IMG/VR virus record: IMGVR_UViG_3300028844_006665
Location: 1 to 26,540 of that record
Reading direction: 5' to 3' (one strand)
DNA: 26,540 nt
Origin: a virus
Shown here: positions 5,844 to 26,540 of the stretch, one piece after another
How positions within the stretch are numbered: position 1 is the stretch's first letter
Layout of the letters: each line of letters starts with the position of its first letter
Program-made: the position numbers and the translations under genes
The notes under the pieces: generated by a model
What the model saw: the letters and a program-made list of their open reading frames with translations, nothing else
Told to the model about the DNA's origin: nothing
Databases searched by the model: none

Positions 5844-6191
5844 TCAGCAAACCAGTCCATTCACGGCCATCATTAAGAATAGGAATATTATACTGGGGAG
5901 CATGGCGATACATGCGGCTTCTGGTAATATGAAGAAAATTAACGCCCAAATCTTTTCGTTGTATCTTCCATCTTCGTTTTTCAAATCTCGATACATGTCG
6001 CGCACCCAATCCCAAGGCATGTCATAGGGATACCTGCGCCTATCGCGAGAAGATCTGCGTGTTAATTGCACACGAGGGCACACTTCGTGGTAGGCCAGCT
6101 TCCATATTAGCCAGGGCCAACCGATAACACCGCCCGCTATCAAGTGAATTAAAGCGTTATCCTTATCTGCAAAATTACAGATGATATCCAT
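5844..6191 (-). CDS. Two-span membrane protein coupled to the repressor gene
   Basis: A 115-residue protein whose ATG shares one base with the repressor stop (TGATG), so it should be translated with it. Two hydrophobic regions are visible: about residues 16-33 (LIAGGVIGWPWLIWKLAY) and 81-112 (WALIFFILPEAACIAMLP, IIFLFLMMAVNGLV), separated by an Arg/Tyr-rich cytoplasmic-like loop. A membrane protein expressed from the lysogenic promoter alongside the repressor would fit superinfection exclusion or another lysogenic-conversion function; that is inference from position. No family recognised. Confidence 0.65.
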   Translation of the reverse strand: MDIICNFADKDNALIHLIAGGVIGWPWLIWKLAYHEVCPRVQLTRRSSRDRRRYPYDMPWDWVRDMYRDLKNEDGRYNEKIWALIFFILPEAACIAMLPSIIFLFLMMAVNGLVC

Positions 6192-8128
6192 CAGAACTTA
6201 ATGAATGCGCCAACCACAACGGCGTGGATCCACACCTTCTCATCGCCTGTGTTCTCTAGGAGCATGCGCGTGTGATTGCGATTGCTGCTCTCAGGCTGCA
6301 GCACGTAGACATTAGGTAAGCTGTCGTGCTTTTCGAGACGCTTGCAGGTGGCCTCTACCTCATCCGACGCCTTGTCCTGCCGCATGACGATGACGTATTC
6401 GCCGATCGGCAGCTTATCGTCCTCTTCATTGTATCTATTACAATAAAGGATCGATCCTTCCGGGAACCGCTTATCCATCGAATCCCCGCGAACGCGTAGG
6501 CCGAACTCCGCTTCGTCGGCACCAACACCAGGATATGAAACGAACTCTGGCAGTTCCTCAACAGCGGCACGCCACTCGCCAGCTTGCACGTATCCAACGA
6601 CCGGGAACAGCCCTTCGGTTTCAGTGAACGTAACCGGTTCGACGCCGGTTTTGCTTATGGTTTCGTTGAGTTGATTTGAGGCGCCGCGCTTTTCATCTAT
6701 CAACGCAGTGGTCGCATCGACGCGAACGTGTAAATCACTTCGGTCGATATTGAGGCCAGAGAGGTAAGCGATACTGCCTTGCAGCATGCGTCCGATATTG
6801 CTGGTTGGTGCAATAATCGCGACGGCGCGCGCTGAGAGCTTAAGTCGATGCAGGATGTAATTGACGTGTGATTTAGGCTCTAAATAACCCTGCGGACCTT
6901 TTGGTGATTGATGCGGGTAGCTTCTTCCCGCTTCTTCCGGGTCAATGTAAAGCTCGTTATCGCCAAGCTGTATCGAGCAAAAGTTCGTCCAATCGGTCTC
7001 ATTTATATATTGATGCGCTTGTTTTGGAATTTCGGTCCGCATCGTTTCCATAAGGGAATCGACAATTCGATTCAGCGTGTTGTCTTTGAAATCGACCGGA
7101 TTGTTTTCCACAAATAGCGGCGCGATGCTCTGCTTCATAAATCTTGTTACAGCGGACTGGGCTACCTGCGCCGTCGTTGCCATTTTATTATAAGACCAAC
7201 CAGTGATCTCTCGGAGAAGCTCAAAACCTGCTTGTTTAATAAGAACTTGCCGGTGCAACGCGAATGCTGCCAAGGTCTCTGCAGGGACTAGTGGTGCTGG
7301 CTCACTGGGTGGTTGGTCCTCATCACCCATCTCTTCAATATTTTTAGATCCGGCTGAAATAACGGCTGAGACATACCGCTTTTCAGCATGTAGATAGGCC
7401 AGTCGATACGTTCGTAATGCTCTTTGAAACTCTTCATCTGCGAAGCCGATCCGCGCCTTCTCATATTCGAAATCGTATTCGCGCCAAGTTTCATACAGTC
7501 TATCGAATTCATCGTCGCAACTTATGAATTCCCCTACAGAGATTTCTTCGTTAAAGCGTTCGTATATTTTCCCAGGGTTATTCATATACTCTTTCGTAAG
7601 ATGGGTGATCCTCACTTCCGTTGCGTCGCTGGCTCTCTCCCCATAATCGTGCATCGCGCTGCTCGTGTCTTGCGCGCGATAGTACCAATTGTGATTTTCC
7701 TCTAACTCGTCCTCGACCTTCTTTATCTCAACCTCGATGAAATGGAGACGCTTCTTATTTGCCGCCAAACGGTCTTTATAAATCCCTATGTAATTCGCCC
7801 CGTCTTCCGCCTCGGCCTTATCAAGATTCAAGGGGCGCGCGGCCGGTTTGACCCGCTCAAGACCCTCCATCATTTGATCGATCCGCTCATCGAGCGGGGC
7901 GTCTTTGTCAATATTTCTGGCGTTTTCGCTGATTTTCTCAACACGCGCGCGGGTCGGCGGTTCATAAAAGTCTCCGCGGTAGACGCCGGGGAGCGGTGGC
8001 GCGAAATCACCGTTATATCTCCTATGCCGACCCATAACGGACTTCTTCTCCGCCGGTTTTTCAGGCGTTTCCTCGTCCGAATCGGTGTGACTTAGAAAGC
8101 CAACTGGTTCGTCTGTGTCCTCTTCCAT
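6191..8128 (-). CDS. Very long LexA/CI-type repressor with S24 autoprotease domain
   Basis: A 645-residue protein, against about 200-240 for usual CI-like repressors. The C-terminus is an S24 self-cleaving domain: Ala516-Gly517 in GYVQAG as cleavage site, Ser550 in RGDSMDKRFPEGS as nucleophile, Lys596 in VEATCKRLEK as general base. A helix-turn-helix-like segment lies at about residues 300-333 (LLREITGWSYNKMATTAQVA). The first 290 residues are charged and helical, with coiled-coil stretches near 98-125, then about 180 residues of unknown fold between HTH and protease. It divides from the Cro-like gene across a palindrome, so it is the likely lysogeny repressor, inactivated by RecA on DNA damage. 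No Shine-Dalgarno precedes the ATG. Confidence 0.85.
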   Translation of the reverse strand: MEEDTDEPVGFLSHTDSDEETPEKPAEKKSVMGRHRRYNGDFAPPLPGVYRGDFYEPPTRARVEKISENARNIDKDAPLDERIDQMMEGLERVKPAARPLNLDKAEAEDGANYIGIYKDRLAANKKRLHFIEVEIKKVEDELEENHNWYYRAQDTSSAMHDYGERASDATEVRITHLTKEYMNNPGKIYERFNEEISVGEFISCDDEFDRLYETWREYDFEYEKARIGFADEEFQRALRTYRLAYLHAEKRYVSAVISAGSKNIEEMGDEDQPPSEPAPLVPAETLAAFALHRQVLIKQAGFELLREITGWSYNKMATTAQVAQSAVTRFMKQSIAPLFVENNPVDFKDNTLNRIVDSLMETMRTEIPKQAHQYINETDWTNFCSIQLGDNELYIDPEEAGRSYPHQSPKGPQGYLEPKSHVNYILHRLKLSARAVAIIAPTSNIGRMLQGSIAYLSGLNIDRSDLHVRVDATTALIDEKRGASNQLNETISKTGVEPVTFTETEGLFPVVGYVQAGEWRAAVEELPEFVSYPGVGADEAEFGLRVRGDSMDKRFPEGSILYCNRYNEEDDKLPIGEYVIVMRQDKASDEVEATCKRLEKHDSLPNVYVLQPESSNRNHTRMLLENTGDEKVWIHAVVVGAFIKF

Positions 8129-8136
8129 GCATCGTC

Positions 8137-8164
8137 AGTATCACAAATGTGCAGATATGCTCAA
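8137..8164 (-). promoter_or_regulatory. Repressor promoter (leftward)
   Basis: On the minus strand TTGAGC (8164-8159) and GATACT (8142-8137) are 16 bases apart, with a TG extension before the -10. Initiation would fall within a few bases of the repressor ATG at 8128, so the message would be leaderless or nearly so, as for lambda cI from its maintenance promoter. Confidence 0.45.
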
Positions 8165-8205
8165 GTAGAAAGTCAAGAAAACCAACGATAGCAATAAAAT
8201 ACACG

Positions 8206-13050: not shown

Positions 13051-13110
13051 ATGGAAAAACCGGTCGTACCAAATCGATCCTCCTATCAAACTATCGAAGG
13101 CCGTCGATGA
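13051..13110 (+). CDS. Possible 19-residue leader peptide
   Basis: ATG at 13051 encodes MEKPVVPNRSSYQTIEGRR and stops at a TGA (13108-13110) that overlaps the ATG of the replication protein (ATGA). The overlap suggests translational coupling. No good ribosome-binding site is seen, and another tiny frame (from 13043) covers the same DNA, so this is tentative. Confidence 0.25.
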   Translation: MEKPVVPNRSSYQTIEGRR

Positions 13111-16100
13111 TCGGGCCCGCTGAAGTAGCGGCTGCGATTGGCGGCAATTCCCGCGAAGGCGATGGATACGTTGCCTTCTGTCCACTGCATGAAGCAGACG
13201 GGAAATCACACAACCCCTCCCTGATCCTTTCAGAAGGTCATTCTAAACCGGTCATCGGTCATTGCCGGGCGGGGTGCTGCCAGGATGACATTAATGCTGC
13301 GGTTGATGAGATCGTCGAGCGCCTCGAAGCAGGCGAAACCGTGACTCCGATCGAGAGCAAAGTCGAAATCAAGAAGTCAGGAAACAAGCTGCACGCCCGT
13401 ATCCTGAGGGAGGGTGCCCCCACGGACGCGTATCAATATGACGACATTGACGGGAATTATGTTGTCACGAAGATCCGCTGGGAAGCCGTCATCGACGGGC
13501 GGCGTGAGAAGACATTCCAATTCTGTAATCAGCAACTGCCTGCAACGAGCCCGTCCGCATTCCGCATGCCGGAAGCTGCGGCAATGCCTTTATATAATGC
13601 GCACGCTCTAAGAGATCTGGAGTCTGACGACCTCGTCGTGATTTGCGAGGGCGAGAAGGACGCCAATACCATGCTGGGCCTCGATTACGTTGCGGTATCG
13701 ACACATAACGGCGTAGCAGGGTGGAGCAGTCAGAGCGCTGGCTGTTTGCAGGGTCGCCATGTAGCCATCGTGCCAGACAACGACGACGCAGGACACAAAT
13801 ATGCCAAGAAGGTAATCAAAGCGCTCTCTCCATTCGCCAAAAGCGTGAAGGTCATCGAGCTGCCCGGACTGAAAGATAAGGGTGACGTTACAGACTGGGT
13901 TGATGCCGGCGGGACCGAGCAACAATTTTGGGAACTCTACACCGGGCAGTCTGAGGAGGATCTTGGTGGCCCCAATCCTGAGTGGAGAACGACACTCTCG
14001 CGAAACGCGCAGGGCGCCATACGATCGAATGACTTTAATTTAAATATCATGCTGTCGCGGTCCCCCGAGTTTCACGGGCTGTTTCGTTATAACCACTTTC
14101 AAAATGTTATTGAGCTGTGGCGAGCGATACCCGGCAGTGATGACACTGGCCCGTTCCCAAGAGTTTGGCAGGATACAGACGAGACGGATGTCCTGGTCTG
14201 GGCGCAGCGAGCAGTGTTCCCGTCAATGGCGCGCTCCAAGATCATGCCGGCCGTCCAGGCTGTCGCCGCTGACAATGGCTATGACCCGCTGGTCGACTAT
14301 CTCGACATGCTGGCGTGGGACGGGGAGGAACGTCTTGATTGCTTCCTGCAGGAATATCTCGGGGCTGAAGGTGTCGACCGTTATATAAGTGCGGTGGGTC
14401 GTATGTGGGCCATATCCGCAGTTGCTCGTGCCTATCAGCCCGGATGCCAAGTCGACACCATGCTCGTACTGGAGGGACGCCAGGGGCTTTATAAGTCGTC
14501 GGCTTTACGAGCCCTGGTGCCGCATGAAGAGTGGTTCTCTGACGACATCAGCTCGATGCGCGGCGATAAGGACGACAAGCTGGCGCTGTTCGGGCGCATG
14601 ATCATCGAGATCAAAGAACTCGAGGCGCTGCGGAAGGCTGAGATTGGCGCTATCAAATCGTTTATCGATACACGGGTCGATAAGATCCGTGTACCTTACG
14701 GTAGATCGGTCCAGTCCTTTCCGCGGCGGTGTGTCATGGCCGGGTCGTACAATCCAACGGGCCACGGGTATCTGAAAGATGCATCCGGCGGTCGGCGTTT
14801 CTGGCCCGTAACAATCAAACATCTGGCCGACATCGATGGGCTGCTGGCGATTCGTGATCAGCTATGGGCCGAGGCGGTGGTGGCCTATAAGACCGGTGAA
14901 AAATGGTGGACGTTCGACCGCGACCTCATGAAGCTTATCGAGGCAGAACAGGAAGAGCGCTATCAGGTCGAACCGATTGAGGAGTTGGTTCACAGTTACA
15001 TCGATAACGAGTGTCTTGCGGATGATCAGGATGGTGCGCACAACATCCGTCGATCGTGGATACCCCGCAAAGAGCCATTAGACACATTCTTCACGCATAA
15101 CTTCTGTGAGGATGTATTGCTTCGATCGTGGGACCAGGTGAGGCGCCCTGATCTGAATATTATTGGTCAGGCGATGACCCGCATCGGGTGGACAAAGGGC
15201 AAATTATGGAACGCTCGCATCAGCAAAACGAGCACCGGGTGGAAGCGTCCTGACACTGAAAACCGACCTCACCCTCCGAGAAAAACCACCTCACCCTCTG
15301 ACAAAATTGCCGCAAAAAGTGATGCACAGGCATCCGCTGCGTTGCGTGGGAAGGTGCAAAACGCCGCCGTGGAGACGGAAAACGTAGCCGTTTTGTCGAA
15401 AACCTCACCCTCTGACCCCCAAAGGGTGAGGGAGGGTGAGGTAAAGGGTGAGGTGCTAAGTTATTCCAGCGCAACAGAAAAAGGTAAAACCTCACCCTCC
15501 TCACCCTCTTTTCCTATTAACTTTGTGGAAAGTAATGAGGGGTTAGATACAGGGGTATATATAAAGTTTTGGGACACTGAGGGTGAGGTTGGCCTCCACG
15601 ACGCTCGCTCGGCACTGAAGAGCGCCCTCGACGACGGGATCGTCGGGTTCGACCTTGAGACGACGGGACTGTCGCCGGTCGACGACAGCCGGGCCCGACT
15701 GATGCAGGTCTGGCGCGACGATCACTGTCACGTTTTCGATCTCGATGTGTTTGGTGGCCTCGAGGCATTCGGCGATCTGCTGGAAGGCTCCGACCTTGTC
15801 GCCTTCAACGCACTTTTCGAAATGAGGTGGCTCAGGGCTGCGGACATTGATGTCGTCCCTCACGACCTGATGTTAGCCTGGTCGGCGGTTTATGGCGGCA
15901 CATTAAAAATAACGCTCGAGCATGTTGTGAAGGAGCTGCTGGGCGTTGAATTGGACAAGACGATGCAGAAGTCGGACTGGTCGGGTGAGTTGACCAAAGA
16001 TCAGATCCAGTACGCCTTCGATGATGCGTACTTCACGCTCATGGCTTGGCGGAAGCTGACGGGCATCATGGCCCCGGAGCAGGTTGCCGGATACGAGCTA

Positions 16101-17345
16101 TTCAAGAATTCACAACGGCCCGTCATGAGAATGATGGAAGCCGGCGTTGGGTTCGACATCGACGGCCATGCCGAACTGCTCTCACGATTTGAACGAAAGT
16201 TCATCTGGGCGGAAGATTGGTTAGCGCGCCACGTACCCGACGTGAAGAACTGGTCGAGCTCTTCGCAGGTTGCGAAATGGTTGAACGATTCTTTGCCTGA
16301 GAACGTGAAGGGACGGTGGCCTCGTACCGAAAAGACACTGGCCATGAAGACCGGTGCCGATGCCTGTAAGCAATTCATCCTCGATGTCGACCGCGACCTT
16401 CGCCGCGTCTTTTGGGCCTACCAAATTCTCCAAACCTATAGGAAATACATAAGCACCTATGGCGAGAAGCTTGTTCGCAATCATTATCGGGATAGGCGCC
16501 TCTATGGGAACTTCAGGATCGGCCGAGCCATCACCGGGCGAATGGCCTCCGAGAAACCAAACCTCCAGAACATGCCGGGCAGGGGTCCTATAGGAGCTGC
16601 GTTTCGCAGTCTGTTTATAGCACCGCCTGGTAGCCGTCTGGTAATTGCTGATTACAGTCAGATCGAGGTTCGCGTCGGTGGCATACTGGCTGATGAGCCA
16701 GCCTTCAAAGAAATGTTTGAACGTGGCTACGATGTTCACGCCGCGACGGCCGCGCTGATGCTCGGCAAGGAATACGATGAGGTTTTTGACAGCGAAAAGA
16801 AAAGTGTCCGTCCGGAGTACAAGCATGCGCGGTCGGCAGCGAAGGAAATTACATTCGGAATGCAATACGGCATGGGTGACCGGACGCTTGCCAGCAAGTT
16901 GAACCTCACGGTCCGGGAGGCGCGTCAGGAAATACGCAAATGGGAAGAGAACTTTCCCAAGGTAACAGAATGGAGAGAGAAGAGTGCGGAGTATGGTGCT
17001 CGCAATAAGGGGCTGGTGATGCCGAGCGGCCGCACGATTACTCTCGATTATAGACCGTCTCCACAAGCCTGTTACAATTATCCGGTTCAAGGCACTGCCG
17101 GCGACGTGATGTATGCCGCACTGGTCGAATTGGATCGGCGCCTCGATGAGGCGGACATCGATGCAGTGCCATTGTTGGTCGTTCACGATGAGATCGTGCT
17201 TGAGGCGGCAGAAGAAGATGCGGAGGAAGCGGCGAGGATACTCGAAGAGGCAATGGTCGCCGGGTTCAGGAAACTGTTCCCGAACGGCGGCATCAACAAT
17301 TTGGTCGAAGCGAGTGTCTGTAGCACGTGGGCAGATAAATCATGA
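13107..17345 (+). CDS. Primase-helicase-exonuclease-DNA polymerase fusion
   Basis: One uninterrupted frame of 1412 codons. Domains in order: primase-type zinc finger (Cys25, His28, Cys53, Cys57); TOPRIM at about 176-265 (Glu181 in CEGEKD, Asp224/226 in PDNDDAG); VirE/D5-type ATPase at about 310-700 with Walker A GRQGLYKS (457-464) and an acidic strand MIIEIKE; a low-complexity Ser/Pro/Lys linker at about 709-830; DEDDy 3'-5' exonuclease at about 835-965 (Asp849/Glu851 in GFDLETTGL, NALFE, YAFDDAY); family A polymerase to the end, with motif A DYSQIEVR (Asp1182), motif B RSAAKEITFGMQYGMG, motif C VVHDEIVLE (Asp1361). It would make primers, unwind, proofread and extend. These functions are usually on separate phage proteins. 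In exonuclease motif II the usual Asp is Glu. Confidence 0.93.
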   Translation: MIGPAEVAAAIGGNSREGDGYVAFCPLHEADGKSHNPSLILSEGHSKPVIGHCRAGCCQDDINAAVDEIVERLEAGETVTPIESKVEIKKSGNKLHARILREGAPTDAYQYDDIDGNYVVTKIRWEAVIDGRREKTFQFCNQQLPATSPSAFRMPEAAAMPLYNAHALRDLESDDLVVICEGEKDANTMLGLDYVAVSTHNGVAGWSSQSAGCLQGRHVAIVPDNDDAGHKYAKKVIKALSPFAKSVKVIELPGLKDKGDVTDWVDAGGTEQQFWELYTGQSEEDLGGPNPEWRTTLSRNAQGAIRSNDFNLNIMLSRSPEFHGLFRYNHFQNVIELWRAIPGSDDTGPFPRVWQDTDETDVLVWAQRAVFPSMARSKIMPAVQAVAADNGYDPLVDYLDMLAWDGEERLDCFLQEYLGAEGVDRYISAVGRMWAISAVARAYQPGCQVDTMLVLEGRQGLYKSSALRALVPHEEWFSDDISSMRGDKDDKLALFGRMIIEIKELEALRKAEIGAIKSFIDTRVDKIRVPYGRSVQSFPRRCVMAGSYNPTGHGYLKDASGGRRFWPVTIKHLADIDGLLAIRDQLWAEAVVAYKTGEKWWTFDRDLMKLIEAEQEERYQVEPIEELVHSYIDNECLADDQDGAHNIRRSWIPRKEPLDTFFTHNFCEDVLLRSWDQVRRPDLNIIGQAMTRIGWTKGKLWNARISKTSTGWKRPDTENRPHPPRKTTSPSDKIAAKSDAQASAALRGKVQNAAVETENVAVLSKTSPSDPQRVREGEVKGEVLSYSSATEKGKTSPSSPSFPINFVESNEGLDTGVYIKFWDTEGEVGLHDARSALKSALDDGIVGFDLETTGLSPVDDSRARLMQVWRDDHCHVFDLDVFGGLEAFGDLLEGSDLVAFNALFEMRWLRAADIDVVPHDLMLAWSAVYGGTLKITLEHVVKELLGVELDKTMQKSDWSGELTKDQIQYAFDDAYFTLMAWRKLTGIMAPEQVAGYELFKNSQRPVMRMMEAGVGFDIDGHAELLSRFERKFIWAEDWLARHVPDVKNWSSSSQVAKWLNDSLPENVKGRWPRTEKTLAMKTGADACKQFILDVDRDLRRVFWAYQILQTYRKYISTYGEKLVRNHYRDRRLYGNFRIGRAITGRMASEKPNLQNMPGRGPIGAAFRSLFIAPPGSRLVIADYSQIEVRVGGILADEPAFKEMFERGYDVHAATAALMLGKEYDEVFDSEKKSVRPEYKHARSAAKEITFGMQYGMGDRTLASKLNLTVREARQEIRKWEENFPKVTEWREKSAEYGARNKGLVMPSGRTITLDYRPSPQACYNYPVQGTAGDVMYAALVELDRRLDEADIDAVPLLVVHDEIVLEAAEEDAEEAARILEEAMVAGFRKLFPNGGINNLVEASVCSTWADKS
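15267..15588. repeat. CCTCACCC repeat cluster in the linker region, candidate origin
   Basis: The 8-mer CCTCACCC occurs five times on the plus strand (from 15267, 15289, 15403, 15490 and 15499, each extended to CCTCACCCTC) and four times as its complement GGGTGAGG (from 15424, 15434, 15446 and 15581). Opposed copies at 15403-15412 and 15432-15441 can form a hairpin. All lie in DNA encoding the variable linker between helicase and exonuclease. The following 15520-15565 stretch is AT-rich. Iteron clusters inside the initiator gene are known from lambda O; here the same role is proposed by analogy. Confidence 0.6.
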
Positions 17346-17987: not shown

Positions 17988-20009
17988 ATGCACCGCTTGC
18001 TCGCCATCGCAGCTCTCGTTCTATCCTTCGGCATATCGTCTGCCGAGGCGGCCAAGCGTGTTGCATTGGTGATTGGTAACAACAGCTACAAAACACTTCC
18101 TGACCTGGACAACGCGCGAAAGGACGCTGACGGAATTGCATCCAAACTCCGGAGCCTGGGTTGGGATGTCGTCTTGAAGAAAGATTTAAGCCGGCGGCAG
18201 GCCTATCGACAAATCGCGACGTTCGAAAGCAAGCTCCGGGATGCCGAAGTGGGTCTGGTTTATTATGCGGGGCATGGCATTCAAAAGGATGGCAAAAACT
18301 ATCTGATACCATCCGATGCCGAGATAGAGGTCGAGGAGGATCTGCGGTCGGAAGCCTTTACATCATCGGACATTCTTGAAGCGATGGAGAAAGCGGGCGC
18401 TCCGATGAACATCGTCATCCTGGACTCCTGTCGGGACAATCCGTTGCCAAGACGGTCCCGTTCGGCTGAACGTGGTCTTGCCGCTCCCTCGCTGCCGGCG
18501 GGTATTAAAGGCACAGCGATTGTGTTCTCTGCTGGTCCCGGACAGGTGGCAATGGATGGGCCGAAGAACGGACATGGTGTGTTTACGGGCGAGTTGCTGA
18601 AGGTGCTGGATAGACCGGGATTAAAACTCGAAGAGGTCTTTAAACAGACCGCTCGGCAGGTGGCGGTCCGGACCAACAGCAAACAGAAGCCATGGATGAA
18701 TTCATCGGTGACGAGCGATTTTTATTTCCAGGAAGAGAAGGCTACGCCGGCTGCTTCTGTGCCCGCTGCAGATAAGGAGACAGTGTTCTGGCAGTCGATA
18801 GCAAACAGTGATCGCGCTGGGGATTATAAAGCCTACCTATCGCAGTATCCAAGTGGAGCTTTCGCAGCGCTCGCTCGCAGTCGTTTGTCCGCACTAAAGG
18901 AGACTAAAACGGCGAGCCTGTCTCCACCAAATTACACGATCGAGGCAATGGACGAGACGCTGGTAGCGCTGCGTTCAGCGAACGTGCGTGAACGGCCTAC
19001 GACATCTTCCGCAAAGTTGGCGACCCTAAAATCAGGTTTTGCAGTCGAGGTGACGGGTAAGACACAGTTTGAAGGTAAGGACTGGTACCGGATCGCGATG
19101 TCTGGCCGCAGCGCTTATGTCTTTGGGTCGTTACTGGGTGAGAAAGCGACCCCGGTGGTGGGCGTCTACCCATCTCTGGCACCGGGCAAGACGTTCCGGG
19201 ACTGCGCGGATTGCCCGGAAATGGTGGTGATCCCATCAGGTTCATTCAGGATGGGTGATTTGAGTGGTGGTGGTTACAAGTATGAAAAACCGGTTCACAA
19301 GGTGCGGATCGGTTACAGTTTTGCGGTTGGAAAATACGAGGTAACGCGAGGAGAATTCGCAAAGTTCATCACGGAGACAGGCTACGATGCGGGCAACTCC
19401 TGTTATGTCTGGTCGGGTACGAAGTGGGAGAGCCGGTCAGGTAAAACCTGGAGGGATCCGGGATATAGCCAAACTGATCGAGATCCTGTGGCCTGCGTGA
19501 GCTGGGACGATGTAAAAGCGTATGTTGACTGGATGTCTCGGAAGAGTGGCAAGGAATATCGTCTTCTGAGTGAGTCCGAGTGGGAGTACATGGCACGGGC
19601 TGGGAGTACGTCGAAATATCCATTTGGTGCCAGTGATACAGCTCTTTGCCAACACGGGAACGGAGCGGATCAAAGTACGAGTTTTGATTGGCGTAATAAG
19701 TCTTGTAATGATGGGGTTGGTGAGAAGACATCCCCGGCGGGAAGTTATAAGGCTAATAAATTCGGTGTCTATGACACGGTCGGTAATGTCTGGGAGTTGG
19801 TAGAAGACTGCTGGAACAAGAACTACCACGGCGCACCCATTGATGGCAGTGCATGGACGAGCGGCGGTGACTGTTCAAAGCGCGTCTTGCGGGGCGGTTC
19901 CTGGTACAGCGGTCCTAGGCTCCTCCGTTCCGCGCTCCGCAACTGGAACGATGCCTCGTTTCGGTACAACCTCCACGGGTTCCGGATTGCCAGGACGCTT
20001 TCGCGCTAG
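17988..20009 (+). CDS. Secreted caspase-SH3-FGE protein, probable DGR target
   Basis: A 673-residue protein. A signal peptide (about residues 1-21, LLAIAALVLSFGISSAEAA) predicts export. A C14 caspase-like domain follows at about 22-245, with catalytic His96 in YYAGHG and Cys148 in LDSCRDNP. A spacer (about 260-300) contains YLSQYPSGAFAALARSRL; then a bacterial SH3 domain at about 318-385 (ALRSANVRERP...SGRSAYVFGSLLG). The C-terminal half is a formylglycine-generating-enzyme (FGE) type C-type-lectin fold from about 405 (PEMVVIPSGSFRMG, EVTRGEFAKF, LLSESEWEYMARAG, YDTVGNVWELVED), ending in RVLRGGSWYSGPRLLRSALR and GFRIARTLSR. That end is where DGRs diversify such proteins. The fold would be the binding face and the caspase the effector. 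Base composition is close to the phage part. Confidence 0.85.
   Translation: MHRLLAIAALVLSFGISSAEAAKRVALVIGNNSYKTLPDLDNARKDADGIASKLRSLGWDVVLKKDLSRRQAYRQIATFESKLRDAEVGLVYYAGHGIQKDGKNYLIPSDAEIEVEEDLRSEAFTSSDILEAMEKAGAPMNIVILDSCRDNPLPRRSRSAERGLAAPSLPAGIKGTAIVFSAGPGQVAMDGPKNGHGVFTGELLKVLDRPGLKLEEVFKQTARQVAVRTNSKQKPWMNSSVTSDFYFQEEKATPAASVPAADKETVFWQSIANSDRAGDYKAYLSQYPSGAFAALARSRLSALKETKTASLSPPNYTIEAMDETLVALRSANVRERPTTSSAKLATLKSGFAVEVTGKTQFEGKDWYRIAMSGRSAYVFGSLLGEKATPVVGVYPSLAPGKTFRDCADCPEMVVIPSGSFRMGDLSGGGYKYEKPVHKVRIGYSFAVGKYEVTRGEFAKFITETGYDAGNSCYVWSGTKWESRSGKTWRDPGYSQTDRDPVACVSWDDVKAYVDWMSRKSGKEYRLLSESEWEYMARAGSTSKYPFGASDTALCQHGNGADQSTSFDWRNKSCNDGVGEKTSPAGSYKANKFGVYDTVGNVWELVEDCWNKNYHGAPIDGSAWTSGGDCSKRVLRGGSWYSGPRLLRSALRNWNDASFRYNLHGFRIARTLSR
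19881..19997 (+). other. Putative DGR variable region
   Basis: The last ~117 coding bases before the stop encode the FGE binding surface. Codons where DGR template repeats usually have AAC/AAT are here TAC, AGC, GGT (19905-19913), CTC, CTC, AAC, GAT, TTT, TAC, AAC, CTC and CAC: nearly all NNC or NNT, as adenine-specific mutagenesis would leave. Constant positions (RGGSW, LRSA, GFRIAR) are intact. The end, GGGTTCCGGATTGCCAGGAC, is the expected place for the initiation-of-mutagenic-homing sequence. No template copy was found in the window. Confidence 0.6.
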
Positions 20010-20018
20010 CGAAAGTGT
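19995..20018 (+). other. Hairpin at the stop codon, as downstream of DGR targets
   Basis: CTTTCGC-GCTA-GCGAAAG (19998-20015) is a perfect seven-pair stem with a four-base loop, extended to ten pairs with one G-T. The TAG stop lies in the loop/stem. DGRs such as that of Bordetella phage BPP-1 need a short hairpin with tetraloop just downstream of the variable region for efficient retrohoming; size and position match. Confidence 0.6.
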
Positions 20019-20063
20019 TACCTCTTCAATCTTTACCTCTTTACCTCTAGGGGGAGAGCCCAG

Positions 20064-20098
20064 AGAGGGGTTTCCCCTTTCTGGCCGCGTAAGCGGCT
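20064..20098 (+). terminator. Two small hairpins after the caspase-FGE gene
   Basis: AGAGGGG-TTT-CCCCTTT (20064-20080) and GGCCGC-GTAA-GCGGCT (20083-20098, closed by a G-T pair) lie back to back, the second followed by AATTT. Together they could terminate the gene ending at 20009. Confidence 0.45.
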
Positions 20099-20220
20099 AA
20101 TTTCAGCTGGTTAACTCAGAGTAGCTTCCAATGCCTCGCGAGAAGATCAGGTCCTGCGATCATACGACCAGTAACGATAAAACCGTTATTTGGGCCGGAT
20201 GGGGCCAGCGCGACGGCGTA

Positions 20221-20381
20221 ACCTACCCACACACACAAAAATCCACTAAACTGATTTCTATGAGGAAACTAACCGCCACCATCTGTCTGACCTTTGCCGT
20301 GCTTCTTGGAAGTGTGGGGATGAGTGCGAGTGCTGATTACCAAAAGGATCTAACCGCATACAAGAGTGGTGATTACGCAAC
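20221..20381 (+). repeat. Export-leader module, copy 1
   Basis: The upstream sequence CTACCCACACACACAAAAATC... plus ATG at 20260 and codons for MRKLTATICLTFAVLLGS, continuing in near-identity with copy 4 to GGTGATTACGCAAC (ends 20381), after which the two sequences part abruptly. This is the longest shared stretch between copies. Confidence 0.8.
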
Positions 20382-20412
20382 ATTTTGTAATACCGAAGGT
20401 GGCGATGACTAA
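20260..20412 (+). pseudogene. Truncated Sel1-family secreted protein remnant
   Basis: A 50-codon frame: signal peptide MRKLTATICLTFAVLLGSVG, then ADYQKDLTAYKSGDYAT, the start of a Sel1-repeat protein as in the gene at 23495. At base 20381 homology stops and the frame runs through CNTEGGDD to a TAA. The following lipoprotein gene starts inside this tail (ATG 20405). So only the leader and the first 20 mature residues of a Sel1 gene survive. The export leader is intact, so a short secreted peptide could still be made. Confidence 0.7.
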
Positions 20413-20989
20413 TTTGATAAAAGCAAAGGTTTCCAATTTATCTGCTACAGCAGTGCTTTTAATTTCTCTCGCTGTCACCGGATGCCAAACCACAGAAAAT
20501 AGTTTTGAGCCGCCAGATACATCACTGCGTATGATCCAAAGCACTGCTGATTATTGTCAAATTACAGATTCAAATTTTGCAATTGATTTAGATTATCTGG
20601 AATTATCGGTTTGGTGGTCTGATAAATGTGAGGATGGTTCTCCGAAAGGTTCGGGGAGACTGATTATATTTAAGGGTGATGCAATAGTTGAAGAATATGT
20701 TGGTAAAATGGAGAAAGGTCCAGTTGGAATGGCGAGACATGGCCAGGGTGTCATTACCCATTATTTTAGAGAAACTATAATGGGTGAATCTAAACAATTT
20801 CCTCGCTGGAGATATGAAGGTGAATTCCTATTTAATGAGCGAACTGGCAATGGGTTTTACACAAATGAAACCGGCTTGCGAATTAAGGGCTCGTTTAAAG
20901 ACGGTAAACCTAATGGAGTTTGCGCTGTAACGTTCCCTAACGGCACCTCTAAAAATATTGAGTTTGATGAAGGAAAACCAATCCAGTAA
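20405..20989 (+). CDS. MORN-like repeat lipoprotein
   Basis: A 194-residue protein. The frame is open from 20366, but the ATG at 20405 starts a proper lipoprotein signal: MTNLIKAKVSNLSATAVLLI then SLAVTGC, with lipobox Cys at about residue 27. The mature part contains MORN-like units: KGSGRLIIF, HGQGVITHY, WRYEGEFLFNERTGNGFYTN and IKGSFKDGKPNGVCAVTFPNG. MORN repeats are structural and can bind lipid or partner proteins. The gene is AT-richer than its surroundings and begins eight bases before the stop of the truncated Sel1 leader frame, so it may be translated by coupling from it. It looks inserted into a Sel1 gene. Confidence 0.7.
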   Translation: MTNLIKAKVSNLSATAVLLISLAVTGCQTTENSFEPPDTSLRMIQSTADYCQITDSNFAIDLDYLELSVWWSDKCEDGSPKGSGRLIIFKGDAIVEEYVGKMEKGPVGMARHGQGVITHYFRETIMGESKQFPRWRYEGEFLFNERTGNGFYTNETGLRIKGSFKDGKPNGVCAVTFPNGTSKNIEFDEGKPIQ

Positions 20990-21202
20990 GGAATCTCTTA
21001 TTGGCCGAGAAAAAATATGCGCAGCGTGAAATTAGAAACTCTTCAATGATAGCAGCTGGGGCTGTTCAATTCACAACGAGAATAGTCAAGTATATCGGAA
21101 AACTCCGTTAATACTGAACAAATCTAGCACTCTCTTGAGATGATGAACCAGGCTTTTAAAGATAATAGCAGATATAGGTTAGCCTTATGGGTAACGCAGA
21201 CT

Positions 21203-21296
21203 ACACAGGTATGCCAAATCCACTGAACTCATTTCTATGAAAAAACTGACCGCAATATTCTGTCTAACCATTACCGTGCTTTATGGGGCTACGGGA
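21203..21296 (+). repeat. Export-leader module, copy 2
   Basis: A diverged copy: upstream ...GCCAAATCCACTGAACTCATTTCT, ATG at 21237, then codons for MKKLTAIFCLTITVLYG. It is the least similar of the five upstream parts. The end of the signal has changed to GATGC, converting it to a lipoprotein signal. Confidence 0.75.
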
Positions 21297-22610
21297 TGTC
21301 AGACATCTACAGTTCTGTCCTATTCAGGCCAGTCAGGAGGGAGCCTGCGGCCCTGCACAGGACACCCTGAATCACTTCTATGGACTTATTGTCGGGGATC
21401 CTACCGCCTTAGCAATGGCGAGAGTTATGTTGGAGATATTATCAATGGGAAACCTGGCGGAAAAGGAGAAGTTACGTTCAGTGCACCCCATCCTGATGCA
21501 GGACAGAAATTGGTTGGTGAATTTACAGAGGGCAAGCTTTTAAAGGGAACAGTAACAAACAGGAGACCTCATATTTATGCGGGTTTAGAAAAGTCTGGTA
21601 AATTTTTAGACGGTAAACTTTATGGGAATGTAATTGTTATATGGCGTGTACCACATGCATTGGCGGGTCAGAAATACACTGGTGAAGCGAGAGATAACAA
21701 GCGGCATGGGCAAGGGGTACAAACGTATCCCAAAGGAGGAGTGGACGAAGGTATTTGGCAAGATGGTAGATTTATAAAGCCGCAAAAAACGACTAGTGAA
21801 TTTTTGGCGAAAAGCCGTAAAGAAATTGCCAGTCTTAAAAATCAGAACCAATCCAAACCCAAACAGGTTGCCAAAAGACCTGAACCCAAGAAGTCACCAC
21901 CACCTAAATCGGGTTACACAGGTTCTGGTTTCTTTGTCTCCAAACTTGGTCACATTATTACCAATGAGCATGTGGTCCGTCAGTGCGGTTCAGTGACTGT
22001 CGGAGACAATGCTAACAAACAGATTAGTGCATCCATTCTGGAGAAAGATAAACGCAACGACCTTGCTCTTCTGCGTATATCCTCCACCGAGATGGCATCT
22101 GCAGAGACCAAATCACTGATAAGTAAACTAGGTGCCAAAAAACTTGGACTGAAACTTGTTCCCCTCGCATCTGGTGGACTGATGCGTTCAGATGACATTG
22201 AACTCGGTGAGAGTGTAATGGTTGCGGGTTATCCTTACGGGGAACTGTACAGCAATACCATCAAGGTTACAGGTGGAATGGTGAGTGCTGTAAAAGGTAT
22301 GGGTGATGACAGTGCTCAGTTCCAGATGGATGCTGCGGTTCAACCCGGCAACTCTGGCGGTCCTATCTATGACGAGAATGGAAACATTGTCGGTGTGGTC
22401 ATATCCCAACTGAACAAACTGAAAGTCGCAAAGACGATTGGGTCACTTCCAGAGAATGTGAACTTCGGTATCAAGGCATCCACCGTGAGACAGTTCCTGA
22501 CCTCTGCTGGATTACCCACCAAGTGGTCTAATCGGACGAAGAGAAAGTCCACAAAGGAATTGGCACAGATTGCCAAGAACCAGACCGTGATGGTGGTCTG
22601 TAATCCTTGA
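21237..22610 (+). CDS. MORN-repeat trypsin-like protease lipoprotein
   Basis: A 457-residue protein. The leader shared with neighbouring genes ends in LYGATGC, a lipobox at Cys21, so export and lipid anchoring are expected. Residues 50-185 hold MORN units (YVGDIINGKPGGKGEVTF, LVGEFTEGKLLKGTV, YTGEARDNKRHGQGVQTYPKGG). A Lys/Pro-rich linker (about 205-228) leads to a trypsin-like HtrA-type protease with the full triad: His245 in ITNEHVV, Asp275 in RNDLALLRI, Ser373 in PGNSGGPI. No PDZ domain follows. It is probably a periplasmic or surface protease targeted by its MORN part. Codon use and AT content match the other cargo genes. Confidence 0.85.
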   Translation: MKKLTAIFCLTITVLYGATGCQTSTVLSYSGQSGGSLRPCTGHPESLLWTYCRGSYRLSNGESYVGDIINGKPGGKGEVTFSAPHPDAGQKLVGEFTEGKLLKGTVTNRRPHIYAGLEKSGKFLDGKLYGNVIVIWRVPHALAGQKYTGEARDNKRHGQGVQTYPKGGVDEGIWQDGRFIKPQKTTSEFLAKSRKEIASLKNQNQSKPKQVAKRPEPKKSPPPKSGYTGSGFFVSKLGHIITNEHVVRQCGSVTVGDNANKQISASILEKDKRNDLALLRISSTEMASAETKSLISKLGAKKLGLKLVPLASGGLMRSDDIELGESVMVAGYPYGELYSNTIKVTGGMVSAVKGMGDDSAQFQMDAAVQPGNSGGPIYDENGNIVGVVISQLNKLKVAKTIGSLPENVNFGIKASTVRQFLTSAGLPTKWSNRTKRKSTKELAQIAKNQTVMVVCNP

Positions 22611-22613
22611 TGA

Positions 22614-22720
22614 GTTCTCTACCCACACACTCAAAACACTCTAAATCCATTCCTATGAGAAAACTGACCGCAACACTCTGTCTGACGATTGCTGTGCTTC
22701 TTGGAATGACGGGGATGAGT
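22614..22720 (+). repeat. Export-leader module, copy 3
   Basis: Upstream CTCTACCCACACACTCAAAA, ATG at 22655, codons for MRKLTATLCLTIAVLLGMTG, ending near ATGAGT (22720). Immediately after, sequence becomes extremely AT-rich and unrelated to the other copies. Confidence 0.85.
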
Positions 22721-23269
22721 TCCAAAATGTTAAAGTTTATTAAATATATTTCTACTTTTTTAATATGCGTATCAATTGGATTAGGTTATTTATTTTCTGA
22801 TAATTTATCTTTCGCTGAAAATATAAAATACATGGAAGAGAAATTAAAATATTTAAAACAAAAAAAACAACTAGAGTCTCAAATAGAAGTAATAAATAAA
22901 AGATTAATGGACTTGGATAAGCAGTATAAAACCAGTGGGAAAATAAATAATACAACCAAAGATAAGAAAATTGATAATTCTAAATTAAAAAATGTATTTG
23001 GTAAGAATTACCTTATGAAGGGTGAAACTGATACTGGTTTTTGGGAAATAAGCGCTCTTGCTGATGGTACATTAGAACTATCCATGAGTAATGGATATTC
23101 AGATTATGGTAAATGGTGGATGGAAGGTAATACTTGGTGCCGAAAATTTGATGAAGCACGGAATTCTGTTACAAGTTGTTATATGATACAGCATGTCGAA
23201 GATAATAAATATTTGATTGAAAAAACCAAAGGTAATGGAGTTGATAAGACAACCGTCACCATTGACTGA
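22655..23269 (+). CDS. Leader fused to an AT-rich coiled-coil exported protein
   Basis: A 204-residue frame. Residues 1-24 are the shared export leader. A second Met (ATG 22727) then starts another full signal sequence, MLKFIKYISTFLICVSIGLG, so the payload brought its own. After that comes a coiled coil (ENIKYMEEKLKYLKQKKQLESQIEVINKRLMDLDK), a polar spacer and a C-terminal domain of about 85 residues with strand pattern (GFWEISALADGTLELSMSNG, WWMEGNTWCRKFDE) and two Cys (TWC, TSC) that could form a disulfide. From 22727 on, the DNA is far more AT-rich than the leader. Translation may begin at either Met. No family recognised. Confidence 0.65.
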   Translation: MRKLTATLCLTIAVLLGMTGMSSKMLKFIKYISTFLICVSIGLGYLFSDNLSFAENIKYMEEKLKYLKQKKQLESQIEVINKRLMDLDKQYKTSGKINNTTKDKKIDNSKLKNVFGKNYLMKGETDTGFWEISALADGTLELSMSNGYSDYGKWWMEGNTWCRKFDEARNSVTSCYMIQHVEDNKYLIEKTKGNGVDKTTVTID

Positions 23270-23313
23270 TTAGACCAAAGACCATTGCTGAAGGTCCTTC
23301 TGGACATCGCATT

Positions 23314-23344
23314 AGACCGCAGTTTTTCCTCTCTGCGGTCTTTT
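23314..23344 (+). terminator. Rho-independent terminator
   Basis: AGACCGCAG (23314-23322) and CTGCGGTCT (23333-23341) form a perfect nine-pair stem around TTTTTCCTCT, followed by TTT. It ends the transcript of the coiled-coil gene. Confidence 0.85.
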
Positions 23345-23453
23345 GCGTGCTTATCTAAAAAAGATGAAAAAGAAGATGCTTCCGTTGTGATGTAAATCTC
23401 CTATCCAACGAGATTTCCAACTGACCTGTGGGTCTTTGATACGGAGACATTTG

Positions 23454-23615
23454 TTCCTCTACCCTCAAACTCAAATCCCTCTAAACTCATTCCGATGAGA
23501 AAACTGACCGCAATATTCTGCCTGACGATTGCCGTGCTTCTTGGAAGTATGGGGATGAGTGAGAGTGCTGATTTACTAAAGGGTGCTTTCGCATACAAGA
23601 GTGGTGATTACGCAA
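23454..23615 (+). repeat. Export-leader module, copy 4
   Basis: Upstream TTCCTCTACCCTCAAACTCA..., ATG at 23495, codons for MRKLTAIFCLTIAVLLGSMG and on through AYKSGDYAT, shared with copy 1 up to GATTACGCAAC (ends 23615). This copy is followed by an intact Sel1 gene and probably shows the original arrangement. Confidence 0.85.
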
Positions 23616-24553
23616 CTGCTCTTCGTGAGTTTCGACCTCTTGCCGAACAGGGGAATGCCGATGCCCAGTTCATGCTGGGTGGGATGTACTATAACGGAGA
23701 AGGAGTTCCAAAGAACGATAAGACTGCGGTGAAGTGGTACAGACTTGCTGCCGAACAGGGGATTGCCGCTGCTCAAAACATCCTAGGTGAAATATATCGC
23801 AGAGGACATGGTGTTCCACAGAACCATAAGACTGCGGTGAAGTGGTACAAACTTGCTGCCGAACAAGGTGATGCCCTTGCCCAGAACAATCTGGGTGCGA
23901 TGTACGCACTTGGACACGGGGTCATACAGGATTGGGTCTATGCCCATATGTGGGGAAATATTGGTGCCTCTAATGGTAGTGAGAGAGGTGCCAAAGTGCG
24001 AGACCTCGCTGCTAAAAATATGACCCCATCCCAACTTGAAACCGCAAAGAAACTTGCCCGTGAATGTATCCGTAAGAAATACAAAGGGTGTGAGAGTGCC
24101 GGTCACCAAAAGGGTCTAACTGCTGCTCAAAGTGCTGATTTCCAAAAGGGTCTAACCGCATACCATAGTGGTGATTACGCATCTGCCATGCGGGAATGGA
24201 CACCTCTTGCTGAACAGGGGGATGCCTCTGCCCAAACACTAATTGGTGCGATGTACAACGAAGGAAAAGGTGTTCCACAGGACTATAAGACTTCAGTGAA
24301 GTGGTTCAAACTTGCTGCCGAACAAGGTGATGCCGATGCCCAAGGAAATCTGGGTATGATGTATGCCTTTGGGTGGGGAGTACTAAAAGATTATGTCTAT
24401 GCCCATATGTGGGGAAACATCGCTGCGAAGAATGGAAATGAGTTGGGTGCGAAGTTGCGAGATGATTTTGAGAAGAAAATGACCCCATCCCAACTTGAAA
24501 CCGCACAGAAACTTGCTCGAGAATGTGTCCGTAAGAAATACAAAGGGTGTTGA
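23495..24553 (+). CDS. Exported double Sel1-repeat protein (fused tandem copies)
   Basis: A 352-residue protein with a signal peptide (about residues 1-25, cleaved near SESA-D). Sel1 units such as WTPLAEQGDASAQTLIGAMY and KTAVKWYRLAAEQGIAAAQN repeat with a 36-residue period. It is two gene copies in one: residues 1-197 end in LARECIRKKYKGC, which in related genes is the C-terminus, and then SADFQKGLTAYHSGDYAS restarts a mature Sel1 protein ending again in LARECVRKKYKGC. The stop present in the other copies (ggtgtTGAgtt) is lost here by one base (ggtgtGAGagt). Sel1 repeats form helical scaffolds for protein contacts, probably in the periplasm. Confidence 0.85.
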   Translation: MRKLTAIFCLTIAVLLGSMGMSESADLLKGAFAYKSGDYATALREFRPLAEQGNADAQFMLGGMYYNGEGVPKNDKTAVKWYRLAAEQGIAAAQNILGEIYRRGHGVPQNHKTAVKWYKLAAEQGDALAQNNLGAMYALGHGVIQDWVYAHMWGNIGASNGSERGAKVRDLAAKNMTPSQLETAKKLARECIRKKYKGCESAGHQKGLTAAQSADFQKGLTAYHSGDYASAMREWTPLAEQGDASAQTLIGAMYNEGKGVPQDYKTSVKWFKLAAEQGDADAQGNLGMMYAFGWGVLKDYVYAHMWGNIAAKNGNELGAKLRDDFEKKMTPSQLETAQKLARECVRKKYKGC

Positions 24554-24605
24554 GTTAGAACTCCACTCAGACTGCTAATGACTTTAACAAACATAAGGAA
24601 AATTA

Positions 24606-24887
24606 ATGTCACTCGATCTCTCCACGCTCAATAAAGGTCAAACCCGTAAATTAAATGCTCTTCGTAAAAGTCTGGGAAATGAGATCGCAGATAATGCATT
24701 TGCAAAATGGATGAAAACGCAGACCAAAGAGAACTCGGTTAAGATCGATCCTGTTGCTGAGAAAATCAAAGTTGCCTTATCCTCGTTGGTGCATGACAGC
24801 GCATTCCGTTTGGGCAGCAAGGGATACATTATCAAACGGTCTAAGGGTAAGGGTGCATCTGGGTTTGTAGTCAGTAAGGTTGAGTAG
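24606..24887 (+). CDS. Small basic hypothetical protein
   Basis: A 93-residue protein with AAGGAAA nine bases before the ATG. Sequence is Lys-rich (LSTLNKGQTRKLNALRKSLGNEIADNAFAKWMKTQ...IDPVAEKIKVALSSLVHDS) and ends in GYIIKRSKGKGASGFVVSKVE, where the Lys/Gly-rich hairpin-like end could contact nucleic acid. It has no export leader, unlike its neighbours, and lies between two Sel1 genes. No family recognised. Confidence 0.6.
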   Translation: MSLDLSTLNKGQTRKLNALRKSLGNEIADNAFAKWMKTQTKENSVKIDPVAEKIKVALSSLVHDSAFRLGSKGYIIKRSKGKGASGFVVSKVE

Positions 24888-24894
24888 GGTCAGG

Positions 24895-24991
24895 TTCCTC
24901 TACCCACACACTCAAAACCCTCTAAATCCAATTCTATGAAAAAACTGACCGCAACACTCTGCTTGACCCTTGCCGTGCTTTTTGGAAGTGA
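24895..24991 (+). repeat. Export-leader module, copy 5
   Basis: Upstream TTCCTCTACCCACACACTCA, ATG at 24936, codons for MKKLTATLCLTLAVLFGS. The upstream 40 bases are nearly identical to copy 3. None of the five copies has a recognisable Shine-Dalgarno sequence; the pyrimidine/A-rich upstream sequence is what is conserved. Confidence 0.85.
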
Positions 24992-25625
24992 GGTGAGAGC
25001 ATCTGATTTTTTGACCGGATTGGAAGAATATAAGAAAGGAAATTTGGGAACCGCATTAAGGATATGGAAACCACTTGCTGAGCAAGGCAATGCAGATGCC
25101 CAATATAATTTGGGTATGATGTACAAACGTGGTCGAGTTGTTCAAAGGGATTTTCAGAAAGCAGTGAAGTGGTTTGAACTTGCTAGTAAAAACGGCAGCA
25201 CTGAGGGAACCTATAATCTCGCAGTTGCGTATCACAAAGGACAACATGTAGAAAAAAATCTCGAATACGCATTGAAGTTGTACCATATCGCTGCTTGGAA
25301 CGGTTATGCAGATGCGGAATTTCAAGTTGGTAATTTTGCATTTCAACGCAAAGAATATAAATCCGCCTCAAATTGGTATCGCCTTGCTGCTGAACAGGGG
25401 CATACCGAAGCACAACAATCCCTGGGTGCCTCGCATCACAAAGGTCTTGGTGTTCTTCAGGATTACGTTCGTGCTCATATGTGGGGAAATATTGCTGCCT
25501 CAAATGAGAGTGAGGAGGGCAGTAAATTGCTAGACCTCGTTACGAAACAAATGACCTCTGCACAACTCGAAAAAGCACAAGACCTTGCCCGTGAATGTGT
25601 CCGTAAGAAATACAAAGGGTGTTGA
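24936..25625 (+). CDS. Exported Sel1-repeat protein
   Basis: A 229-residue protein: signal peptide (about residues 1-22, cleavage near VRA-S), then YKKGNLGTALRIWKPLAEQG and Sel1 units (ADAQYNLGMMYKRGRVVQRD, FELASKNGSTEGTYNLAVAY, YRLAAEQGHTEAQQSLGASH). It ends in YVRAHMWGNIAASN...LARECVRKKYKGC, the same C-terminal module as both halves of the preceding Sel1 gene, and the TGA is retained. It differs from that gene mostly in the middle repeats. Likely a periplasmic scaffold; partners unknown. Confidence 0.85.
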   Translation: MKKLTATLCLTLAVLFGSEVRASDFLTGLEEYKKGNLGTALRIWKPLAEQGNADAQYNLGMMYKRGRVVQRDFQKAVKWFELASKNGSTEGTYNLAVAYHKGQHVEKNLEYALKLYHIAAWNGYADAEFQVGNFAFQRKEYKSASNWYRLAAEQGHTEAQQSLGASHHKGLGVLQDYVRAHMWGNIAASNESEEGSKLLDLVTKQMTSAQLEKAQDLARECVRKKYKGC

Positions 25626-25637
25626 GTTAGGAAATCT

Positions 25638-25871
25638 CTAATCTCCACCCTTTTCCTCAAATGCGAAGTAGTCAGCATATCCACCCATCTCAAAACTTGT
25701 TCCTCTGGGTAGTCCTAACTTCTTGTCTATCAGTTTGAGGTCAGCAAAAGTTCCGTCATCTCCAAGAGCAGCAATCTCCTCATTCACTCTTTTTGCAATT
25801 GCGTCATAACCCGCATTTCGTAGTGGTTTTGAAAAACCCTTCAAGGATTCAATTTCGTCTTCAATCGTCAT
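25638..25871 (-). CDS. Small hypothetical protein
   Basis: A 77-residue acidic protein (MTIEDEIESLKGFSKPLRNAGYDAIAKRVNEEIAALGDDGTFADLKLIDKKLGLPRGTSF...FAFEEKGGD), mostly helical. Its ATG overlaps the end of the upstream membrane mini-gene (shared ATGACGATTGA), so the pair form an operon. It is convergent with the Sel1 gene, 12 bases apart. No family recognised. Confidence 0.6.
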   Translation of the reverse strand: MTIEDEIESLKGFSKPLRNAGYDAIAKRVNEEIAALGDDGTFADLKLIDKKLGLPRGTSFEMGGYADYFAFEEKGGD

Positions 25872-26004
25872 TCTTCTCTAATTCCTTCTCTATCAGGTTC
25901 ATCGTCATTTTCATTCCCCACCAGCGACCAGAGTAGAAGGTCACGACAAGAACCATCGTAGTCACCAACGCACACGCAGTTGGTGAGAATGGTATTTCCA
26001 CCAT
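25861..26004 (-). CDS. 47-residue single-span membrane protein
   Basis: ATG at 26004 with AAGGAG six bases upstream. Translation: MVEIPFSPTACALVTTMVLV then VTFYSGRWWGMKMTMNLIEK and ELEKNDD. One transmembrane helix (about residues 10-24) is followed by a Trp/Arg interface and a charged cytoplasmic helix. Its stop overlaps the next gene by 11 bases, supporting a bicistronic unit. No function can be assigned. Confidence 0.6.
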   Translation of the reverse strand: MVEIPFSPTACALVTTMVLVVTFYSGRWWGMKMTMNLIEKELEKNDD

Positions 26005-26077
26005 TCGGTTCTCCTTATTTTAAGATTTGGGTGTGACAAAAAGGGTGGTGGAAATGGGAATTCTAAAACCCCAGAAA

Positions 26078-26094
26078 ACCTCACTTTTTGAGGT
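26078..26094. terminator. Small terminator-like hairpin
   Basis: ACCTCA and TGAGGT pair around CTTTT, with CTGAATTTTT to the right and AAAA to the left, so it could terminate in either direction between the recombinase remnant and the small membrane gene. Confidence 0.4.
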
Positions 26095-26105
26095 CTGAAT
26101 TTTTA

Positions 26106-26131
26106 GTGACAATATCGGTCGATATTGTCAC
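26106..26131. other. 26-base palindrome with GT centre, candidate serine-recombinase site
   Basis: Two perfect 12-base half-sites (GTGACAATATCG and its complement) flank a central GT. That is the exact format of crossover sites of small serine recombinases (12-base half-sites and a two-base core where strands are exchanged). It overlaps the stop codon of the recombinase remnant (26128-26130). Confidence 0.55.
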
Positions 26132-26391: not shown

Positions 26392-26437
26392 AAAAACCGG
26401 CCAGTATGTTGGCGTAAAACGCCACCAGTTGCGTAGT

Positions 26438-26475: not shown

Positions 26476-26493
26476 TTGCGGTGGTTGTTGAGG

Positions 26494-26538: not shown

Positions 26539-26540
26539 GC

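What the first reader, a model, noticed from the sequence alone, without database searches (positions are those of the whole stretch)
15267..15588. Iteron-like CCTCACCC cluster inside the replication gene: candidate origin
Nine copies of an 8-mer in about 320 bases, five one way and four the other, sit in the DNA for the interdomain linker, which is under little protein constraint. Plus-strand copies are read in different codon phases (RPHPP versus TSPSD), so the DNA repeat, not a peptide repeat, is conserved. Opposed copies can form a hairpin next to an AT-rich segment. Lambda places its origin iterons inside gene O; this may be the same strategy in a primase-polymerase gene. The same repeats might alternatively have caused the gene fusion.
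Basis: partly seen in the sequence, partly recalled or inferred. Interest (0 to 1): 0.75.

Follow-up and report, generated by a model that had tools for sequence, protein, structure and literature searches.

The report
Phage replication origin inside a gene
A phage appears to keep its DNA replication start site inside the stretch of gene that joins the helicase and polymerase halves of one replication protein, so the same DNA is both translated as a spacer and, most likely, bound by the helicase that starts copying; the same type of start site follows related helicase genes in many other phages.

Summary
All nine CCTCACCC copies in the 26.5-kb record lie at 15267-15588, 0.6 expected. The gene (13107-17345) fuses Toprim, a VapE-type self-loading helicase, a winged helix, exonuclease and PolA. 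The repeats start 7 nt after the winged-helix coding region, in the linker. They are constrained as DNA: recoding the same peptide never reproduces them. Three further fusion lineages carry a cluster at the same place with different words (CCTCCCAC, GGCTCAAC, ACCTTACC); the 60%-identical relative has a different word throughout while keeping spacings of 44, 9 and 82 nt. In two close fusions iteron third codon positions are 33/34 identical, against 91/123 in the rest of the linker. Unfused VapE genes carry such clusters just 3' of the gene: 30/50 loci overall (7/506 segments elsewhere, 0/74 after polA), usually opposed copies around a ~90-bp AT-rich spacer. A DNA-only search for that geometry with one common word hit 35 contigs, 34 immediately 3' of a SaPI-Rep-type helicase. 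This is very probably a PICI/SaPI-type origin captured inside a coding sequence. Origin activity and protein binding are inferred, not shown.

The parts
13107..17345 (+). 1412-aa fusion gene: Toprim - VapE helicase - winged helix - linker (origin) - 3'-5' exonuclease - PolA
13638..13880 (+). Toprim-like (primase) domain, aa 178-258
   Evidence: Pfam PF13155
14301..14963 (+). VapE-like helicase domain, aa 399-619; nearest solved structure is PriRep1 (7pds)
   Evidence: Pfam PF05272 E 3e-68; Foldseek E 8e-31 and Z 33.7 to 7pds
14973..15245 (+). predicted winged-helix domain, candidate iteron-binding domain
   Evidence: AlphaFold models; matches are the C-terminal part of 7pds and many winged-helix DNA binders
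15266..15275 (+). iteron 1 ACCTCACCCT
15288..15297 (+). iteron 2 ACCTCACCCT
15402..15411 (+). iteron 3 ACCTCACCCT
15423..15432 (-). iteron 4 (one mismatch outside the 8-mer)
15433..15442 (-). iteron 5
15445..15454 (-). iteron 6
15489..15498 (+). iteron 7, first of the 9-bp-spaced doublet beside the AT-rich spacer
15498..15507 (+). iteron 8, second of the doublet (one mismatch outside the 8-mer)
15507..15580 (.). AT-rich spacer (65% AT vs 44% in flanks), candidate unwinding region; 74 nt, same length as in L005
15580..15589 (-). iteron 9, opposed to the doublet across the AT-rich spacer
15612..16061 (+). 3'-5' exonuclease domain, aa 836-985
   Evidence: Pfam PF01612
16239..17261 (+). DNA polymerase A domain, aa 1045-1385
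   Evidence: Pfam PF00476

Best explanation
The cluster is the phage's replication origin: about nine 10-bp iterons with an AT-rich spacer, bound by the helicase part of the protein encoded around it. Most likely the C-terminal winged helix of the VapE-type helicase reads the iterons, two helicase assemblies form on the opposed sets, the AT-rich spacer melts, and the Toprim and PolA parts of the same polypeptide prime and extend. The origin lies where it lies in unfused relatives, directly 3' of the winged-helix coding region; because PolA is fused in frame, it is also translated as a tolerant linker. Shown: repeats, position, DNA-level constraint, conserved layout with changing word, general association with self-loading helicases. 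Inferred: binding, melting, initiation.
For: Exclusive clustering. Three other fusion lineages (L005; L094/L176; L095) carry a cluster at the same place with a different word; window and L005 share spacings 44-9-82 and a 74-nt AT-rich spacer although the word differs. Recoding test 0/1000 in five fusion sequences and in L029. L094 vs L176: iteron third codon positions 33/34 identical vs 91/123 in the rest of the linker (p 0.002) and 463/679 in the upstream coding region (p 8e-5). 30/50 nonredundant VapE loci have >=5 copies of one 8-mer 3' of the gene (or of the winged helix in fusions) vs 7/506 segments elsewhere and 0/74 after polA (p 1e-29, 9e-16). Opposed copies around a spacer of median 90 nt, AT 0.55 vs 0.40, higher in 25/26. 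DNA-only search with one common word: 35 contigs, 26 with VapE ending 113-139 nt upstream, 8 with DUF5906, DUF927 or D5 helicases; reversed-word control 0. Closest solved structure PriRep1. Published PICI origins have the same plan (PMC6092414), and SaPI Rep reads its downstream origin with its C-terminal domain (PMC7581432).
Against: No experiment. GC skew does not change sign at 15.3-15.6 kb. About a third of VapE loci show no clear cluster, including L096, the unfused VapE-Pol relative. Iteron similarity follows VapE core similarity (rho 0.45, p 7e-4) but not the predicted recognition helix beyond that (partial p 0.7), so the binding domain is not identified by covariation. The window has a doublet on only one side of its spacer, and its most AT-rich 40-mer is not unusual for the record.
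Confidence: 0.85

Rival explanations
1. The repeats are a regulatory array (operators or autoregulation sites) for the helicase or another phage protein, affecting transcription or copy number rather than serving as the origin.
For: Iterons often double as control sites (general knowledge); arrays near replication genes can be operators.
Against: The array is 3' of or inside the gene, follows the helicase (26 VapE, 8 sister-family genes) in a DNA-only search, and has opposed sets around an AT-rich spacer, the plan of published PICI origins.
Confidence: 0.08
2. The array is a partition or packaging site bound by another phage protein.
For: Such sites can also be repeat arrays (general knowledge).
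Against: No partition or terminase gene was seen beside it among the domain searches run (not exhaustive); association across phages is with self-loading helicases.
Confidence: 0.03
3. The repeats are a by-product of a repetitive linker peptide or of low-complexity expansion.
For: L094 has a peptide repeat EPQVEPQVEPQV over its four 12-bp-spaced copies.
Against: Recoding gives 0/1000; copies lie on both strands and in several phases; third-position constraint; same arrays lie outside VapE genes in unfused loci.
Confidence: 0.02
4. The repeats caused the helicase-polymerase gene fusion by recombination.
For: They lie at the junction.
Against: Each fusion lineage has its own word, arrays occur at the same place in unfused genes, and unfused L096 has VapE and Pol abutting without a sharp array.
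Confidence: 0.02

Closest known systems
PICI/SaPI replication origins (SaPIs, E. coli PICIs; PMC6092414, PMC7581432)
   Same: Two sets of short element-specific iterons around an AT-rich region, immediately 3' of a self-loading helicase initiator; nearest solved structure PriRep1 (7pds).
   Different: Here in phage contigs rather than satellites; in the fusion lineages the origin is inside the ORF and translated as a linker to a PolA polymerase.
Lambda ori inside gene O (PMC7466680)
   Same: Iterons plus AT-rich tract inside the initiator gene.
   Different: The predicted initiator here is itself a helicase fused to primase-like and polymerase domains; opposed copies around the AT-rich tract; different protein family.
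SCCmec Cch2 putative origin (PMC7581432)
   Same: Repeats downstream of a self-loading helicase gene, bound by its C-terminal domain.
   Different: Three short direct repeats, D5/Primase_Cterm helicase, intergenic.

Membership tests
[quoted passage not shown]
   window ++ / 74-nt spacer 65% AT / - plus further opposed copies; one side of the spacer has a single copy only; general in VapE loci
PICI/SaPI-type origin | lies immediately 3' of the initiator helicase coding region | tested here: met
   starts 7 nt after the end of the helicase+winged-helix profile match; inside the fused ORF instead of intergenic
PICI/SaPI-type origin | initiator is a self-loading helicase with C-terminal DNA-binding domain | tested here: met
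   fold and domain order match PriRep1 7pds over the whole model, Z 33.7; winged helix predicted; self-loading activity itself not tested
PICI/SaPI-type origin | initiator binds the iterons specifically | not testable with these tools
   needs binding assay; recognition-helix covariation not significant
PICI/SaPI-type origin | rep plus ori supports autonomous replication | not testable with these tools
   needs plasmid maintenance test
PICI satellite element | element is a phage-inducible satellite | not tested
   window is a virus record of unknown completeness; several relatives with the array are complete phages of 41-57 kb
lambda-type origin | iterons inside the initiator gene | tested here: met
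lambda-type origin | initiator is a lambda O-like protein without helicase | tested here: not met
   the gene carries a VapE helicase domain
iteron-plasmid origin | plasmid Rep protein family encoded beside direct repeats | tested here: not met
   the protein around the repeats is Toprim-VapE-PolA; no plasmid Rep domain found in it

The most novel reading that the evidence does not exclude
A translated origin: a PICI-type origin that has become the interdomain linker of a complete primase-helicase-polymerase replicase gene, where the word can switch in concert across all copies while the layout stays fixed. [quoted passage not shown]
Probability: 0.75. Interest if true: 0.72.

Novelty: new variant of a known kind. 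Interest (0 to 1): 0.66.

Why it matters
It would give one gene that carries initiator, helicase, priming domain, polymerase and its own origin, and a rule for locating origins in many phages that now have none annotated. Pairs such as window and L005, with the same layout but a switched word, make a natural test of how an initiator and its iterons change specificity together. No paper in the searched library held both 'virulence-associated protein E' and 'iteron'; the library is open-access only.

Tried and rejected
GC skew as an origin marker: uninformative. Covariation between iteron word and winged helix or its predicted recognition helix: no signal beyond VapE core similarity. Search for other contigs with the window's own word and geometry: none. 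Exact array in the unfused relative L096: not found, only degenerate G-rich repeats. Hairpin formation as the function: strong folding but an automatic result of opposed copies. The AT-rich 40-mer of the window alone is not exceptional for the record. SaPI origin papers of 2007 and 2012 and the 2022 structure paper were not held, so SaPI details come from the papers that cite them.

Full report
Observation. All nine exact copies of CCTCACCC in the record lie at 15267-15588, five on the plus and four on the minus strand, against 0.62 expected. The window is the whole held record, a virus contig of 26,540 bases. The unit is about ACCTCACCCT. The copies fall in a single 1412-codon ORF, 13107-17345, with Toprim, VapE-like helicase, 3'-5' exonuclease and PolA domains.

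The repeat belongs to the DNA. Resampling codons for the same linker peptide from the gene's own usage never reached the observed copy number in 1000 trials, for the window, four other fusion sequences and L029. The copies use more than one codon phase and both strands. The linker is the least conserved part of the protein: 39% identity to L005, against 69% in the VapE core, 66% in the winged helix and 60% in exo-pol.

Relatives keep the layout and change the word. The nearest relative, L005 (60% identical), has no CCTCACCC at all but has CCTCCCAC copies at corresponding places. With up to two mismatches, both arrays end with the same arrangement: an opposed group, 44 nt, a plus doublet 9 nt apart, 82 nt, and one minus copy, with a 74-nt spacer of 65% and 62% AT. 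Two more fusion lineages were found, L094 (with the close L176 from a Methylophaga metagenome bin) and L095, with GGCTCAAC and ACCTTACC words in the same linker. L094 and L176 end with 48-9-102. Replacement of a scattered repeat by a new common word, with spacing retained, is what is expected of sites read by one binding protein. Between L094 and L176, iteron positions are 88/89 identical and their third codon positions 33/34, against 91/123 in the rest of the linker (p 0.002) and 463/679 in the upstream coding region (p 8e-5).

The array is a general companion of the helicase. Among 53 nonredundant VapE loci, 50 have enough 3' sequence. In 30 of them the segment from -100 to +700 of the gene end (the winged-helix end in fusions) holds at least five copies of one 8-mer, against 7 of 506 segments elsewhere in the same loci and 0 of 74 segments after polA genes lacking VapE. 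Mismatch-tolerant counting adds L019, L029, L063 and L180. Complete phage genomes are among the positives: Pseudomonas phage LPPA36, Marinobacter phage PS3 and two Heliusvirales phages. In 26 loci with a definable centre, opposed sets flank a spacer of median 90 nt (IQR 83-107), AT 0.55 against 0.40 in flanks, higher in 25 of 26 (p 6e-8); 23 have an 8-12-bp tandem doublet on at least one side and 15 on both. The spacer was chosen as the largest gap of 45-150 nt between opposed neighbours, so its length is partly set by the method; its AT content is less so. In L029 and L180 the array also lies inside the C-terminal coding sequence of VapE itself, so capture by a reading frame is not limited to PolA fusions.

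Reverse test. A search of 2.9 million viral contigs by DNA alone, for opposed GTGGGACA doublets 75-105 nt apart, returned 35 loci. In 26 a VapE gene ends 113-139 nt before the element. Of the other nine, eight have a sister self-loading helicase directly before it: DUF5906 (L257, L258, L275, L276), DUF927 with the Cch helix-turn-helix (L277, L278), or D5_N (L282, L283). L260 is unassigned; its contig ends 314 nt after the element. The same geometry with the word reversed gave no hit. The 35 loci were not made nonredundant and some are probably close relatives of one another.

The protein. AlphaFold models of the helicase part and of its C-terminal domain are confident (pLDDT 91.7 and 89.3) and show a winged helix ending just before the array. 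The best structural match over the whole model is PriRep1 with dsDNA, 7pds (Foldseek E 8e-31; Z 33.7 over 408 residues), followed by the NrS-1 C-terminal region and SaPI5 primase-helicase. The isolated C-terminal domain matches the end of 7pds and a range of winged-helix DNA binders at modest Z. That 7pds is a SaPI initiator is my reading of its title and of the SaPI5 entries released the same day; the paper was not held.

What is known. PICI origins lie immediately 3' of the initiator gene and always have two iteron sets around an AT-rich region; [quoted passage not shown] Lambdoid origins lie in the middle of gene O (PMC7466680). The present array works like the first and is placed like the last.

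Limits. No binding, melting or replication was tested. Iteron similarity follows VapE core similarity (rho 0.45, p 7e-4) but not the predicted recognition helix beyond that, so the winged helix as reader rests on fold and precedent. GC skew gives no support. About a third of VapE loci, including the unfused VapE-Pol relative L096, show no clear array. The order of fusion and array capture is therefore not settled.

Noticed in passing
window 17988-20009 (+): Protein with caspase (Peptidase_C14), SH3 and FGE-sulfatase domains, unusual beside phage replication genes.
   Followed up: no
window about 19800-26540: GC falls from about 0.55 to about 0.43; genes there include a trypsin-like protease with MORN repeat and Sel1-repeat proteins, suggesting host flank or cargo of another origin.
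   Followed up: no
window 6191-8128 (-): 645-aa protein with a C-terminal Peptidase_S24 domain, repressor-like; suggests a temperate phage.
   Followed up: no
L029 4122-6494 with array 6177-6455; L180 5926-8232 with array 7977-8165: Iteron arrays inside the C-terminal coding sequence of unfused VapE genes; L029 has two opposed doublets 9 bp apart around a spacer of about 92 nt.
   Followed up: partly
L257, L258, L275-L278, L282, L283: Origin-like opposed doublets with the same word follow DUF5906, DUF927 and D5 helicases as well as VapE, so one word is shared across helicase families.
   Followed up: partly
L014, L016-L018, L025, L039, about 1.8-4.4 kb 3' of the VapE gene: Strong GTCCCAAC-type arrays distant from the VapE gene, possibly origins displaced by inserted genes or another site.
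   Followed up: no
L096 7639-8360: Unfused relative: VapE stop at 8292 and Pol start at 8297, with only degenerate G-rich repeats around the junction.
   Followed up: partly
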